A stretch of 64,000 nucleotides of DNA, from positions 62,001 to 126,000 of the forward strand of contig CAMJBC010000002.1 of the NCBI GenBank assembly GCA_946403755.1, in the 5' to 3' direction. Each line of letters opens with the position of its first letter. The first letter of the stretch is position 1. This DNA is from an uncultured Mycoplasmatota bacterium (GTDB taxonomy: Bacteria > Bacillota_I > Bacilli_A > RF39 > UBA660). The notes beneath the pieces are model-generated. The model did not search any database. It was given only the letters and a program-made list of their open reading frames with translations, and was not told where the DNA came from. Positions 50,301 through 57,951 of the stretch are shown in pieces. The position numbers were made by a program, and so were the translations under genes.

Positions 50301-51815
50301 ATGAAAAAATATATGTGTGAAAAATGTGGATATATAGAAGAAAAAGAAGACATAACAAAAAATTATATATGTCCTATGTGTGGTGCACCTAAAGAAAATT
50401 TTAAAGAATTAGAAGAAACTAATATTTCACCAGAAGAAATTAATGCAGTAATAGATTCAGTAATTGATAATATATTAGATGACACAGCTGAAAAAATAGT
50501 AAATGATGTAGAAGAAGATAAAAGAATTAGAATAAGTGACTATAATCCATCAATTATGAGAATAATGGAAAAGTGTATTAATTGTGGTCAATGTAAGAAA
50601 ACATGTGAAAATATAGTTAATTTAAAATATGATTTAAATAAATGTAAAGAACCAATATGTTTAGGATGTGGTCAATGTATTTTAAATTGTCCAACTGGAG
50701 CATTAGTTCCTAGATATGAATATAGAGAAGTAAAAGAAATATTAGATGCTAATGAAAAAATAGTTGTTACTATTATTTCACCCGCAGTAAGAGTATCTAT
50801 AGGTGAAGCTTTTGGATTAGAACCTGGTGTGAATAGTGAAAAGAAATTAGTAACAGCACTTAAAAATTTAGGATTTGATTATGTATTTGATACAGCATTT
50901 GGAGCAGATTTAACTATATTAGAAGAAGTAGCTGAATTTGCTACTAGATTAAAGAATAAAGAACAACTACCTCAATTTACTAGTTGTTGTCCATCATGGG
51001 TAAAATATGCTGAAATATATCATCCTGAATTAATACCTAATATATCTAGTTGTAAAAGTCCAATTGGAATGCAATGTGCAATAATTAAAGAATACTTTGC
51101 TGAGAAAAAAGGATTTGATCCAAGTAAGATAGTAACTGTTGCAATAACACCATGTACATCTAAGAAAATGGAAGCAAAAGAATATACTTTAAATATTGAT
51201 CATGTCATAACAGCTAGTGAATTAGCTATACTACTACATGAAGAAAACATTAAATTAGATGAATTAGAGGAAGAAGAATTTGATAATATGCTAGGAAGTA
51301 GTAGTGGTAGTGGAGTAATGTTTGGTACTTCAGGTGGAGTTTGTGAATCAGCTATCAGAACACTATATAGAATAATGTTAAATAAAAACCTAGAAGGAGA
51401 TCAATTAGTATTTGAAAATCTTCGTGGTTATGATGGTATAAAAGAAGCTACTATACAAATAGGAGAATACAAATTAAGAGTAGCTGTTGTACAACAAATG
51501 GAAAATTTAGAAAAATTATTAGAGAATGACAAGTATAAACAATTTCATTTTATAGAAGTAATGAATTGCAAAGGTGGATGTGTTGGAGGAGGAGGACAAC
51601 CTCTAGGACAAATACCTAAGATGGATGAAATAAAACAAAAACGTAGTGAAGGTTTATTCAATATAGATAAGCAAAGGGTTAAAAGGTGTGCTCATGATAA
51701 TTCAGAACTAAAAGAATTATATAGAGAATATCTAAAAAATCCACTTAGTGAAACAAGTTTAAGATTACTTCATACATCATATTCTGATAAGAGTAATTTA
51801 CTAGGTGACAAATAA
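50301..51815 (+). CDS. [FeFe]-hydrogenase-family protein with N-terminal rubredoxin-like and 2x[4Fe-4S] ferredoxin domains
   Basis: YMCEKCGYIEEK...ICPMCGAPKENF; CINCGQCKKTCEN, CLGCGQCILNCPTGA; H-cluster motifs TSCCPSWVKYAE, TPCTSKKMEA, MNCKGGCVGGGGQP. Confidence 0.9.
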   Translation: MKKYMCEKCGYIEEKEDITKNYICPMCGAPKENFKELEETNISPEEINAVIDSVIDNILDDTAEKIVNDVEEDKRIRISDYNPSIMRIMEKCINCGQCKKTCENIVNLKYDLNKCKEPICLGCGQCILNCPTGALVPRYEYREVKEILDANEKIVVTIISPAVRVSIGEAFGLEPGVNSEKKLVTALKNLGFDYVFDTAFGADLTILEEVAEFATRLKNKEQLPQFTSCCPSWVKYAEIYHPELIPNISSCKSPIGMQCAIIKEYFAEKKGFDPSKIVTVAITPCTSKKMEAKEYTLNIDHVITASELAILLHEENIKLDELEEEEFDNMLGSSSGSGVMFGTSGGVCESAIRTLYRIMLNKNLEGDQLVFENLRGYDGIKEATIQIGEYKLRVAVVQQMENLEKLLENDKYKQFHFIEVMNCKGGCVGGGGQPLGQIPKMDEIKQKRSEGLFNIDKQRVKRCAHDNSELKELYREYLKNPLSETSLRLLHTSYSDKSNLLGDK

Positions 51816-51850: not shown

Positions 51851-51879
51851 TTGACATTATAATCCATATATTATAAAAT
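51851..51879 (+). promoter_or_regulatory. Promoter of tandem ncRNA copy 1
   Basis: TTGACA (51851..51856) - 17 nt - TAAAAT (51874..51879). Confidence 0.75.
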
Positions 51880-51885
51880 AAAATT

Positions 51886-52631
51886 GTCCAATAGATAACA
51901 AGCTAATTTTAATTAATTAGCACACAATATTTATTAAGACACTAATATATTATTGTAAATATATCCCTTATATTAATATTATATATTTAATTATATATAA
52001 TCTATTAATACAATATATATTTAATTTGTAGAAATACTCAAAAATATAATATATCTATTCTTAATTAAAATATTTTAGTTATCAAGTGAAATAATTCTAT
52101 AGTTGTTATATTTAATTATATAACAATATATGTAATATTAATTTATTACATATACTACCTATTATAAATAACTAAAGTTATTTATAATATAGTTATTAAT
52201 AATACTAATACTATTATTAATAAATAATATATATATTATCTTATATATTAATTTATATAAATAATCCCTATATATTATATAAATATTACTAATACTAATA
52301 TTTATCTAGTATAATTAAGTATTATAGAATATATAATATTTGGACTTGTTATTTGTATCATATTATTAATATTAATTTATTAATAATATGAATACTTCAA
52401 TAACATTCCTTGTATAACAACATTTCTTATTTTTATAAGATATAGAATAACTTATCTACTAAGGACAAATGGTATATCGTTGAGAAAGAAAACTCAAAAT
52501 GATAAGTGATAATGCTGAATACTGATAATATTCAGAAGTGTTAATAATAAAGTAATATTTATTATTAATGATTCATTATTCTTTTTCGGAAACTCGAAGC
52601 AACTACTTTTTATCAGAAAGGGTTGCTTTTT
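51886..52631 (+). ncRNA. Large structured non-coding RNA, copy 1 (~746 nt)
   Basis: No ORF; promoter upstream; at least nine strong hairpins; 3' core near-identical to copy 2; AAGCAAC...GTTGCTTTTT terminator. Confidence 0.8.
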
Positions 52632-52647
52632 GATTACAGGAGAAACT

Positions 52648-53016
52648 ATGAGATATTATATAATTTTTGGTGTTACTATTATTCTAGCAATATTTATTTT
52701 ATTCTTTGATCCTTATAAAGATTATCTTGGCGTATATAAAAATTCAGCAACATTAGAATATACACAAAAAGAAGAAGGATATGAATGGGTTTTAATTCCT
52801 TCTAATGATAATTTAATTGTAAAGGAAGAAAATAATAATAAATGGACTATTCATATTAATAAAGTTGGTGAAACAGATATTGAAGCTAACTTCATTAATT
52901 TAGATACTAATGATATAAAATATAAGATAAATTATAAGTTCGACAATAACGGTAAAAAGCTGTTTTGGCTAGATGGAATGGCCAAAGGATTAGATGATTT
53001 TATTAATCCATATTAA
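52648..53016 (+). CDS. Small membrane-anchored protein, unknown
   Basis: ATG at 52648 with AGGAG RBS; TM YYIIFGVTIILAIFILFF then beta-rich-looking domain. ORF track starts at 52630. Confidence 0.6.
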   Translation: MRYYIIFGVTIILAIFILFFDPYKDYLGVYKNSATLEYTQKEEGYEWVLIPSNDNLIVKEENNNKWTIHINKVGETDIEANFINLDTNDIKYKINYKFDNNGKKLFWLDGMAKGLDDFINPY

Positions 53017-53044
53017 TATAAGTGTAAACTTATATTTTTTTTTA
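53015..53044 (+). terminator. Intrinsic terminator
   Basis: AATATAAG-TGTAAA-CTTATATT then T-run. Confidence 0.85.
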
Positions 53045-53053
53045 ATTTGGTCA

Positions 53054-53082
53054 TTGACATTTAAATATATATATTATACAAT
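53054..53082 (+). promoter_or_regulatory. Promoter of tandem ncRNA copy 2
   Basis: TTGACA (53054..53059) - 17 nt - TACAAT (53077..53082). Confidence 0.8.
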
Positions 53083-53087
53083 TAACT

Positions 53088-53855
53088 TGTCCAATAGATA
53101 ATTTTAGTAGGTTTTACTACAGTTATTATTTTTATTAGACGTATATATTTTTTTTAAAATATTATTTATATTAATTTATTTATAATATTACTTATATACA
53201 CTTAATATATTTAACTATATATTAATTATCTAATATTTTTAATAATTAATTATCAAGTGAAATAATTCTATGGTTGTTATATTTGATCATATAACAATAA
53301 AGTAATAATTTAATTTTTATATTTTATATTATTATTAAGTTAATTTTATATCTTATATTAATTGTTACTTATTATAAATAATATTAATTTATTATTTATA
53401 ATTATAGATTATATTTTTAGATATTAATAATATTTATTAATTTAACTATTATTAATAAAATATATATTAATTTATATATTTTAATATTACTAATACTAAT
53501 ATTTATCTAATTTATATTTTTAATCTATATTTTTTATTACTTATATTATGATTGAGTATTATAGAATATGATATTTGGACTTGTTATCCAGTTCATATTA
53601 TTAATATTAATTTATTAATAATATGATTACTCTATAACATTCCTTGTATAACAACATCTTTATTTTAAGACATAGAATAACTTATCTACTAAGGACAAAT
53701 GGTATATCGTTGAGAAAGAAAACTCAAAATGATAAGTGATTATGCTGAATACTGATAATATTCAGATTAATTAATAATTTAACTATTATTAATGATTCAT
53801 AATTCTTTTCGAAAACTCGAAGCAATTTGCTTTATCAGAGCGGGTTGCTTTTTTG
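53088..53855 (+). ncRNA. Large structured non-coding RNA, copy 2 (~765 nt)
   Basis: Paralogous to 51886..52631: TGTCCAATAGATAA start, shared hairpins, 94-nt core with one mismatch, terminator AGCAATTTGCTTTATCAGAGCGGGTTGCTTTTTT. Confidence 0.8.
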
Positions 53856-53953: not shown

Positions 53954-55030
53954 ATGGAACCATATAAAGCTAAAAAATTACCTATAGAGTTTACAGTAAA
54001 TAAAGAATTAATTAATTTATTATCTGAAGTAGAAGAGGTATATGGAGAATATAAAGGATATTTAAAAAATATGAATTATGATTATCCATCTTTTCTAGAA
54101 TGTGCTTTTGTAAGTGATTTATATTATTCATTTAAAATAGATGGAGCTAAGATAGATAAAGAATACATGTTTCATGCTCCATATATGATTAAAAATAATG
54201 ATTATATAGAATTTAATAATATGAAAAAAGCATTGTTAATTGGAGTTAATGATTCTATTAATAATAATATATCATTAGATACTTTTAATAAAATTAATAA
54301 AACTTTATTTATGAATTGTAAAAAGAATAATTTAACTAAAGGTAGTGGTAAATTAAGAAAGAGTCAAAATTATATATTAAAACCTGGTATAGCAGGATCT
54401 AGTGTATCTTTTATACCACCAGTATATAATGAATTAAGTTCTTTAATGAATAATTTAATAAATTATATTAATTTAGAAGGTGAACATCCAATTATATCTT
54501 CTATTATTACACATTATCAATTTGAAAAATTACATCCATATATTTCTGGTAATGGAAAGATTGGTAGATTAATAATGCCAATTCAAATATCTTCTAAAAA
54601 GAAAGAACCTCCAATATTATTCTTATCTGAGACACTAGAAAAATTAAAAAACACTTATTTTACTTTATTAAGTGGTGAAGTAGAAGAAGATATAGATAAA
54701 TTTATTAAGTTTATATTACAATCTATTATTGAACAATGTAATTTAAATATTAAGAGAATTAAAAAACTAAATAAAATGTATAAAAATGATTATGAAGAAT
54801 TTAAAGAAACAATCGGAGGTACTACTATTAATAAAGTATATCCATATATATTAAAGAAAGTAGTATTTACCACTAATGATATTGTAGTTGATTGTAAATT
54901 ACATATAAATTCTGTTAATAAAGTATTAAATAAAATGGTTGAACATGGATATTTAATAAAGGAAAAGAAAAAAGGTTCTAATAGAGTTACATTTTGTTAT
55001 AAAAACCTATATGAAGTGTTTATGAGTTAA
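53954..55030 (+). CDS. Fic-domain protein with C-terminal winged helix
   Basis: Fic core HPYISGNGKIGR; N-terminal YYSFKIDGAKI resembles Fic_N SxxIEG motif. Confidence 0.85.
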   Translation: MEPYKAKKLPIEFTVNKELINLLSEVEEVYGEYKGYLKNMNYDYPSFLECAFVSDLYYSFKIDGAKIDKEYMFHAPYMIKNNDYIEFNNMKKALLIGVNDSINNNISLDTFNKINKTLFMNCKKNNLTKGSGKLRKSQNYILKPGIAGSSVSFIPPVYNELSSLMNNLINYINLEGEHPIISSIITHYQFEKLHPYISGNGKIGRLIMPIQISSKKKEPPILFLSETLEKLKNTYFTLLSGEVEEDIDKFIKFILQSIIEQCNLNIKRIKKLNKMYKNDYEEFKETIGGTTINKVYPYILKKVVFTTNDIVVDCKLHINSVNKVLNKMVEHGYLIKEKKKGSNRVTFCYKNLYEVFMS

Positions 55031-56919: not shown

Positions 56920-57435
56920 TTATTTAAAATTACTAATTATTTTAGCAACTATGAATACTATTTCATCACTGTTCTTAGTTGCATATTTTTTTCCTATAGC
57001 TTTACCACCAACTGTTAAAGATGATATTAATGAACTAATTACTAAAGTAGTAAGAACTACATTTATAAATAAAGAATTTGCAATATATATAGATAATATT
57101 GCTCCACAAGAACCACTTATTATTCCACATATATCTCCAATTACATCATTACATATACTAGCTATTCTAGGAGAATTTTTAATTAATTGAACTCCTTCTT
57201 TTGAACCTTTTATCTTCTTAGCACTTTTAGCATGAAAAGTTGATTCGTTAGCTGTTAATACAGCAGTACCAATTATATCAAATAAAACTCCAAATAGTAT
57301 AAAGAATATTGTAATGATAATTAAAACTATTACATTATTGCATCTGTTTATAATGACATTTGATAAGCTACTAAAAATTATAGCTATAAAAAAAGTCATT
57401 AAAAATGCTTTAATGATCCAATTATCTTTTGACAT
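56920..57435 (-). CDS. Multi-pass membrane protein, unknown
   Basis: 171-aa hydrophobic ORF with GGGAG RBS. Confidence 0.6.
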   Translation of the reverse strand: MSKDNWIIKAFLMTFFIAIIFSSLSNVIINRCNNVIVLIIITIFFILFGVLFDIIGTAVLTANESTFHAKSAKKIKGSKEGVQLIKNSPRIASICNDVIGDICGIISGSCGAILSIYIANSLFINVVLTTLVISSLISSLTVGGKAIGKKYATKNSDEIVFIVAKIISNFK

Positions 57436-57480
57436 TTTAATAACTCCCTAAGTAAAAATTGTATGGAATATTATAAATTA

Positions 57481-57917
57481 ATTTTACGGCTTTGGTCGAG
57501 TTGAATTTCTCTAGTATTTACTCTTGGTTACCCGTAAGCGATTTCTCTTTGAAAATACTAACCATATGTTACCGCGTATGATCACTCGATCACCACTTAG
57601 TCCGCACTTCAATCCTTATAATAAAGACACACTAGAGGTTTTCCCAAACAAACTTGTACTACTTTTATTCGCTTTTGCAAATTATTTTTCAATTACTATC
57701 CCAATAATTCACTCACGACATGTACGTTCATATCCTCTGGAATGAAAAAAGGAAGCCGATATATGCCGTTACATCTTTTCCTCATTTCTTAAATCATATA
57801 TATGCCCCAATCTGGGCGAATGAAGCAAAATATATAAAGTACCTATTTGTACAATTAATGGATTTTTAGCCCCATCTTCTAGTAGTATGTTTGACTAGCA
57901 TAGTGCTCCACACACAT
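57481..57917 (-). ncRNA. Unassigned structured RNA or very long 5' leader
   Basis: No convincing ORF, higher GC than flanks, local stems (e.g. TGATC-GAGT-GATCA, TAGTATTT/AAATACTA), perfect consensus promoter upstream. Confidence 0.6.
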
Positions 57918-57922
57918 AAGAA

Positions 57923-57951
57923 ATTATATCACACTTTACATAATTTGTCAA
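57923..57951 (-). promoter_or_regulatory. Consensus sigma-A-type promoter
   Basis: Minus strand TTGACA (57951..57946) - 17 nt - TATAAT (57928..57923). Confidence 0.85.

What the first reader, a model, noticed from the sequence alone, without database searches (positions are those of the whole stretch)
51902..53625. Repeated identical hairpin loops (UUAAUU and CUAAUAC) on different stems in both ncRNAs
Copy 1 has six hairpins with a TTAATT loop: 51902-51921 (GCTAATT stem), 51979-52000, 52102-52127, 52127-52154 (TATATGTAATA stem), 52241-52260, 52359-52390 (13-bp stem). It also has two with loop CTAATAC: 52193-52223 and 52279-52305. Copy 2 has TTAATT loops at 53158-53189, 53371-53402 (13-bp stem), 53457-53482, 53594-53625, near variants TTAACT (53202-53225) and TTGATC (53273-53298), and CTAATAC at 53483-53503. 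The same hexaloop on unrelated stems is unlikely to be a by-product of AT richness alone. UUAAUU contains self-complementary UUAA/AAUU, so kissing-loop oligomerisation or a repeated protein-binding site are testable ideas.
Basis: partly seen in the sequence, partly recalled or inferred. Interest (0 to 1): 0.75.

Follow-up and report, generated by a model that had tools for sequence, protein, structure and literature searches.

The report
Hairpin array extending PGK leader RNA
Two long RNA leaders in an uncultured gut bacterium carry many hairpins that share one six-base loop; the loop is kept in related bacteria while the stems change, so it is a real but, as far as I could check, undescribed building block of a known orphan RNA class (PGK RNA), probably a repeated recognition site.

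Summary
The two copies have 12 hexaloop hairpins of the form UU[A/G]AN[U/C] (stems of 7-14 bp), all on the + strand. Dinucleotide shuffles average about 0.01-0.02 TTAATT hairpins per copy, against 6 and 3 observed. The 1.19-Mb genome holds no other cluster. The RNAs are two full-length members of Rfam PGK RNA (RF03040), whose model covers only their 92-nt core. Homologs (97 core loci plus 32 from whole genomes, overlapping) show three things the model lacks. (1) The 5' end right after the promoter pairs with the core in a covarying helix P1, a pseudoknot with P2. (2) The terminator's loop UUAUCAG can kiss the core loop CUGAUAA. (3) Between P1 and the core, this genus and a second lineage (upstream of sigK) carry a variable number of hairpins with the same loop, consensus UUDANU, on covarying stems. 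The kept letters are those of a U-turn (YUNR) loop, not of the self-complementary UUAA/AAUU, so self-kissing is not the main constraint. Best reading: a repeated recognition module inside an attenuator leader, bound by an unknown partner. The partner is inferred, not shown. New variant of a known kind.

The parts
51851..51879 (+). copy 1 promoter: TTGACA, 17-nt spacer, TAAAAT
   Evidence: the same promoter position relative to P1 in homologs
51884..51889 (+). copy 1 P1 5' strand TTGTCC (pairs with 52463-52468)
51902..51921 (+). array hairpin, loop TTAATT, 7 bp
51978..52001 (+). array hairpin, loop TTAATT, 9 bp
52102..52127 (+). array hairpin, loop TTAATT, 10 bp (copy 2 counterpart 53273-53298 has loop TTGATC)
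52127..52154 (+). array hairpin, loop TTAATT, 11 bp
52193..52223 (+). array hairpin, heptaloop CTAATAC, 12 bp
52241..52260 (+). array hairpin, loop TTAATT, 7 bp
52279..52305 (+). array hairpin, heptaloop CTAATAC, 10 bp
52358..52391 (+). array hairpin, loop TTAATT, 14 bp
52443..52535 (+). copy 1 PGK RNA core (RF03040), with P2 CTTATC 52451-52456 / GATAAG 52501-52506, P1 3' strand GGACAA 52463-52468, and hairpin 52515-52535 with loop CTGATAA 52522-52528
   Evidence: Rfam match 85.4 bits; coordinates
52597..52631 (+). copy 1 terminator hairpin and T-run; loop TTATCAG 52610-52616 complementary to CTGATAA 52522-52528
52648..53016 (+). small membrane-anchored protein gene directly behind copy 1 (Shine-Dalgarno AGGAG 52638-52642, ATG 52648)
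   Evidence: no Pfam or NCBIfam family
53054..53082 (+). copy 2 promoter: TTGACA, 17-nt spacer, TACAAT
53087..53092 (+). copy 2 P1 5' strand TTGTCC (pairs with 53693-53698)
53202..53225 (+). array hairpin, loop TTAACT, 9 bp
53273..53298 (+). array hairpin, loop TTGATC, 10 bp
53371..53402 (+). array hairpin, loop TTAATT, 13 bp
53456..53483 (+). array hairpin, loop TTAATT, 11 bp
53483..53503 (+). array hairpin, heptaloop CTAATAC, 7 bp
53593..53626 (+). array hairpin, loop TTAATT, 14 bp
53673..53765 (+). copy 2 PGK RNA core (RF03040); loop CTGATAA 53752-53758
   Evidence: Rfam match 87.2 bits
53819..53856 (+). copy 2 terminator hairpin and T-run; loop TTATCAG 53832-53838

Best explanation
Each copy is a full-length, long-form PGK RNA: a leader of about 750 nt that starts at its own promoter and ends in an intrinsic terminator. 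SHOWN by comparison of sequences: (a) the 5' end pairs with the core (helix P1); the strand order makes P1 a pseudoknot with P2. (b) The terminator loop UUAUCAG is co-conserved with and complementary to the core loop CUGAUAA. (c) Between P1 and the core lies an array of hairpins, one to about eight per RNA, whose stems change freely and covary while the loop stays UUDANU; all members point the same way relative to transcription. (d) In copy 1 the T-run is followed within a few bases by the ribosome-binding site of the next gene. INFERRED: the leader acts in cis as a transcription attenuator, because folding of the core and kissing of the terminator loop would favour termination. The array is a multivalent recognition module: each hairpin presents the same U-turn loop, and a partner that reads the loop binds many of them, with the number of hairpins setting avidity. 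I think a trans-acting RNA-binding protein is somewhat more likely than RNA-only docking, because number, spacing and stem length vary freely while the loop does not.
For: PGK core in both copies and in 18 of 18 genomes of the genus; 97 core loci from genome contigs. Loop enrichment repeats in homologs: 64 TTDANY hairpins of at least 6 bp in 19 RNAs of the genus against 2.8 +/- 1.6 shuffled, and 33 in 12 RNAs of a second lineage against 1.0 +/- 1.0. Stem covariation of one array hairpin: 100% paired, 17 both-side changes against 4.5 +/- 1.7 in shuffles. P1: 93% paired, 7 of 8 pairs with both-side changes, 30 cells against 9.0 +/- 2.3; promoter-anchored permutation test 7.79 against 6.51 +/- 0.12; P1 also appears in the unconstrained minimum-energy folds, z = -12.7 and -10.7. 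UUAUCAG in the terminator loop in 80 of 97 loci, all 80 inside a hairpin followed by T's, background 2.8%. Next gene on the same strand 86 of 90. The loop is not a generic cap in this genome: 10 of 191 hexaloops on Watson-Crick stems of at least 8 bp outside.
Against: No partner is identified. The upstream gene is also co-oriented in most loci (74 of 83), so orientation alone does not prove cis action; the strongest cis evidence is the T-run to Shine-Dalgarno spacing in this genus. No other cluster of the motif exists in the genome, so there is no visible regulon for a trans-acting protein. The loop could be kept because it docks inside the RNA. A PGK-like variant group lacks the UUAUCAG partner in its terminator. 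No expression, probing or binding data exist here.
Confidence: 0.5

Rival explanations
1. RNA-only architecture: the U-turn loops dock into helices (A-minor contacts) within the RNA or between copies, building a large compact or oligomeric particle in the manner of OLE, ROOL and GOLLD.
For: The kept letters (U-turn pattern, A4, purine-rich position 3) are those expected of a docking loop. The RNA is large and strongly folded. OLE, ROOL and GOLLD form homo-oligomers through kissing loops and A-minor contacts (PMC12286853).
Against: The number and positions of the hairpins vary from one to about eight between homologs, whereas fixed docking sites would keep them. No receptor sequence was identified. 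No Rfam similarity to ROOL or GOLLD.
Confidence: 0.3
2. Self-kissing through UUAA/AAUU, as proposed by the first reader.
For: In this genus the loop keeps A3 and A4 in 51 of 53 distinct hairpins of the class, so UUAA is present.
Against: The second lineage mostly has G or U at position 3 (21 of 32) and position 5 varies, so neither palindrome is conserved. Four A-U pairs would be weak. The heptaloop CUAAUAC has no such palindrome.
Confidence: 0.07
3. Generic stable cap: in an extremely AT-rich genome UUAAUU is just the preferred hairpin cap, as GNRA or UNCG are elsewhere.
For: The loop recurs on unrelated stems, as generic caps do.
Against: Elsewhere in the genome the class caps only 10 of 191 hexaloop hairpins (Watson-Crick stems of at least 8 bp) and 18 of 276 hexaloop terminator-like hairpins; GAAA and others are commoner.
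Confidence: 0.1
4. Recent local duplication: the hairpins are copies of one ancestral unit and the loop simply has not diverged yet.
For: The two RNA copies share several homologous hairpins (52102/53273, 52279/53483, 52358/53593).
Against: 25 different 6-bp closing stems among 53 distinct hairpins in the genus and 19 among 32 in the second lineage; stems covary with conserved loops; when the loop changes between the copies it stays within UURANY (TTAATT to TTGATC).
Confidence: 0.03

Closest known systems
PGK RNA (Rfam RF03040)
   Same: Both copies match the whole 92-nt model far above the gathering score; homologs lie upstream of pgk among other genes.
   Different: The Rfam model has none of the 5' half: no P1, no hairpin array, no terminator kissing loop. 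The RNAs here are about 750 nt, eight times the model length.
CsrB/RsmZ sponge RNAs and CsrA-bound leaders
   Same: The same short motif repeated in the loops of many hairpins in one RNA.
   Different: The motif is UUDANU, not GGA; here it sits in a leader that runs into a terminator; no partner protein is known. Analogy only.
TRAP-regulated trp leader
   Same: Repeated short elements upstream of an attenuator (from general knowledge).
   Different: TRAP reads unpaired GAG/UAG triplets; here the repeats are hairpin loops, and no TRAP-like partner was looked for.
OLE, ROOL and GOLLD RNAs
   Same: Large ornate bacterial RNAs; those form oligomers with kissing loops and A-minor contacts (PMC12286853). 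An OLE RNA lies 4 kb away in the same window.
   Different: No covariance-model match of these RNAs to OLE, ROOL or GOLLD; the architecture is different; oligomerisation is untested.
YUNR U-turn loops of antisense RNAs
   Same: All recurring loops (UUAAUU, UUAACU, UUGAUC, CUAAUAC, CUGAUAA) begin with YUNR, the U-turn motif that speeds loop-loop recognition (PMC4485353).
   Different: No complementary target loop is known for the array hexaloops; only CUGAUAA has one (the terminator loop).

Membership tests
PGK RNA (RF03040) | match to the covariance model above the gathering score of 50.8 bits over positions 1-92 | tested here: met
   85.4 and 87.2 bits, full length
PGK RNA (RF03040) | cis-regulatory position upstream of a gene on the same strand | tested here: met
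   copy 1: T-run 52627-52631, Shine-Dalgarno 52638, ATG 52648; 86 of 90 homologs have the next gene on the same strand. Position only; regulation itself is untested
PGK RNA (RF03040) | phosphoglycerate kinase gene downstream (origin of the name, from memory; not part of the RNA model) | tested here: not met
   the downstream genes here are a small membrane protein and a Fic-domain protein; pgk follows in 7 homologs
ROOL / GOLLD / OLE | covariance-model match | tested here: not met
   only RF03040 and two chance-level hits in the region; OLE matches a different place, 57447-57927
OLE/ROOL/GOLLD-like oligomeric RNA | homo-oligomer formation | not testable with these tools
   needs native gels or cryo-EM
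CsrA/RsmA sponge | multiple hairpin loops carrying GGA | tested here: not met
   the repeated loop is UUDANU, without GGA
U-turn (YUNR) loop | 5'-YUNR at the start of the loop | tested here: met
   UUAAUU, UUAACU, UUGAUC, CUAAUAC and CUGAUAA all fit; the three-dimensional turn itself was not tested

The most novel reading that the evidence does not exclude
The hexaloop array is the binding platform of an unknown RNA-binding protein that controls attenuation by PGK leaders: a new regulatory system that works like CsrB or TRAP but with U-turn hairpin loops as the repeated site, expanded to about eight sites in this genus.
Probability: 0.3. Interest if true: 0.8.

Novelty: new variant of a known kind. 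Interest (0 to 1): 0.6.

Why it matters
PGK RNA is an orphan class held in Rfam only as a 92-nt model. The results give it a full length, a covarying pseudoknot, a conserved terminator contact and a repeated loop module with a sharp sequence rule (UUDANU), so its mechanism can be tested directly with defined mutants. A loop that is repeated up to about eight times and kept while its stems change is strong evidence for a specific partner that has not been identified.

Tried and rejected
DNA-level palindrome function: rejected as the main reading, because all 12 hexaloops have the same orientation relative to transcription (none of 18 hexaloop hairpins on the other strand is of the class) and the array lies between a promoter and a terminator. 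Motif as a genome-wide regulon: no other cluster in 1.19 Mb. Viral carriers: the core pattern gave three chance-like hits in viral contigs. Array in all PGK RNAs: no; the groups upstream of pgk and behind efp lack it. Other Rfam families in the region: none. Literature on PGK RNA: searches gave nothing usable, and the paper that I recall as its source (10.1093/nar/gkx699) is not held. One search used a bracket string placed two columns off and serves only as an off-register control. An extended P1 (UAGAUAA with UUAUCUA, seen in the minimum-energy folds) would exclude P2; in L019 and L021 P2 changes in a compensated way (CUAAUC/GAUUAG) but the 5' strand does not follow, so I do not claim a switch. 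The first hairpin survey of homologs was run before minus-strand loci were turned and is superseded.

Full report
WHAT IS THERE. The window lies in a 1.19-Mb draft genome; its relatives are mostly rumen, rabbit and other gut assemblies labelled as uncultured Bacilli. Between a [FeFe]-hydrogenase gene (50301-51815) and a Fic-domain gene (53954-55030) lie two related AT-rich RNA genes on either side of a small open reading frame. Each has a TTGACA promoter with a 17-nt spacer (51851 and 53054), an AT-rich middle, a full match to Rfam PGK RNA (52443-52535 and 53673-53765) and a terminator.

CHECK OF THE OBSERVATION. Against dinucleotide shuffles, six TTAATT hairpins in copy 1 compare with a mean of about 0.01, and three in copy 2 with about 0.02; no shuffle of 2000 reached either. 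With near variants counted (TT[AG]A[ACT][CT]), 12 of 17 hexaloop hairpins of the two RNAs on the + strand are of this type, against none of 66 elsewhere on the + strand of the window and none of 18 on the other strand of the same region. I then read the whole genome: outside the two RNAs 74 of 2722 hexaloop hairpins are TTDANY, scattered and with no cluster of three; the three CTAATAC hairpins of the genome are all here.

WHAT THE RNA IS. The Rfam core occurs in 18 of 18 genomes of the genus and in some other genera of the family. A pattern scan of genome contigs gave 97 core loci, some of them from the same genomes. Comparison shows what the 92-nt model leaves out. First, the segment right after the promoter pairs with the core: TTGTCC with GGACAA in this genus, TTGCTTAG with CTAAGCAA elsewhere, and other versions such as TGTTTAG/CTAAACA, GTTTAGAG/CTCTAAAC, ATAACCTAG/CTAGGTTAT. 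Anchored on the promoter alone, the longest complementary run averages 7.79, against 6.51 +/- 0.12 when partners are permuted among loci. On 19 aligned examples 93% of cells pair, and seven of eight pairs change on both sides, 30 cells against 9.0 +/- 2.3 in shuffles (the register was chosen by eye, so the permutation test is the less biased one). Because the 3' strand of this helix P1 lies inside helix P2, P1 and P2 form a pseudoknot. P1 also comes out of unconstrained folding of both copies, with z-scores of -12.7 and -10.7. Second, the loop CUGAUAA of the last core hairpin is complementary to UUAUCAG, which sits in the loop of a terminator hairpin in 80 of 97 loci (background 2.8%). Third, the next gene is on the same strand in 86 of 90 loci. 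In most loci of this genus the T-run is followed within about 6 to 35 bases by a Shine-Dalgarno sequence and ATG (copy 1: T-run to 52631, AGGAG 52638, ATG 52648), which leaves hardly any room for another promoter. A leader that attenuates transcription is therefore the likely function, but it is inferred; the upstream gene is co-oriented almost as often (74 of 83).

THE ARRAY. Between P1 and the core the genus carries one to about eight hairpins whose loop is UUAAUU, UUAACU, UUAAAU or close to it: 64 in 19 RNAs against 2.8 +/- 1.6 in shuffles. A second lineage, whose downstream gene encodes the sporulation sigma factor SigK, carries three hairpins in a row with UUGAUU, UUAAUU, UUUAUU and similar loops: 33 in 12 RNAs against 1.0 +/- 1.0. 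In one of these hairpins the stem is paired in all ten distinct sequences with 17 both-side changes (4.5 +/- 1.7 in shuffles) while the loop stays UU[AGU]A[UG]U. The class TTDANY makes up 53 of 94 distinct hexaloop hairpins in the genus and 32 of 39 in the second lineage, on 25 and 19 different closing stems, and positions 3 and 5 vary within it (positions 1, 2 and 4 are fixed by the definition of the class). Over the contig loci the stricter class is enriched about 18-fold (odds ratio) within the RNA region over its flanks (57 of 183 against 21 of 850; Fisher P about 1e-29, although related loci are not independent). Groups with short 5' regions, such as those upstream of pgk or behind efp, lack the array.

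HOW IT MAY WORK. The kept letters are the YUNR pattern of a U-turn, a loop fold known to speed RNA-RNA recognition (PMC4485353); the heptaloops CUAAUAC and CUGAUAA fit it too. The loop is not a generic cap: elsewhere in the genome the class closes 10 of 191 hexaloop hairpins on long Watson-Crick stems. Something most likely recognises it. Free variation in number and spacing favours a multivalent partner in trans, as CsrA reads repeated loops of CsrB; an RNA-only solution, as in OLE, ROOL and GOLLD (PMC12286853), remains possible. Neither was tested.

VERDICT. The object is a long form of a known orphan RNA class with parts that its Rfam model lacks; I mark it a new variant of a known kind. 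Whether these parts are described in the paper that defined PGK RNA could not be checked, because that paper is not held.

Noticed in passing
window 56920-57927, - strand: OLE RNA (RF01071, 221.6 bits) directly upstream of a short membrane protein with a weak CNNM match, as expected for an OLE-associated protein.
   Followed up: partly
L058, L111, L119, L131 and about a dozen other loci (listed): A PGK-like variant group keeps GAGAAAG..AAACTC, GATAAG, CTGATAAT and P1 but lacks the TTATCAG terminator loop; the members tested do not reach the RF03040 gathering score. Several lie near ribosomal protein L10 / L7-L12 genes.
   Followed up: partly
window 51884-51898 with 52450-52468; 53087-53101 with 53680-53698: In this genus the 5' strand UAGAUAA could extend P1 by pairing with UUAUCUA, which would exclude P2 (CUUAUC/GAUAAG): a possible switch, but compensation fails in L019 and L021.
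   Followed up: partly
window 52648-53016: Small membrane-anchored protein conserved behind PGK RNA in the genus (15 loci), with no Pfam or NCBIfam family.
   Followed up: partly
window 53954-55030: Fic-domain protein with a C-terminal winged-helix-like region, second conserved neighbour; in several related genomes a second, shorter PGK RNA precedes it, whereas here the second copy is long and resembles copy 1.
   Followed up: no
homologs among L033-L137: PGK RNA precedes quite different genes in different lineages: pgk, sigK, a lysylphosphatidylglycerol-synthase-like membrane protein, an unknown protein behind efp, and others.
   Followed up: partly
window 25107-25203, - strand: Bacterial small SRP RNA (RF00169).
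   Followed up: no
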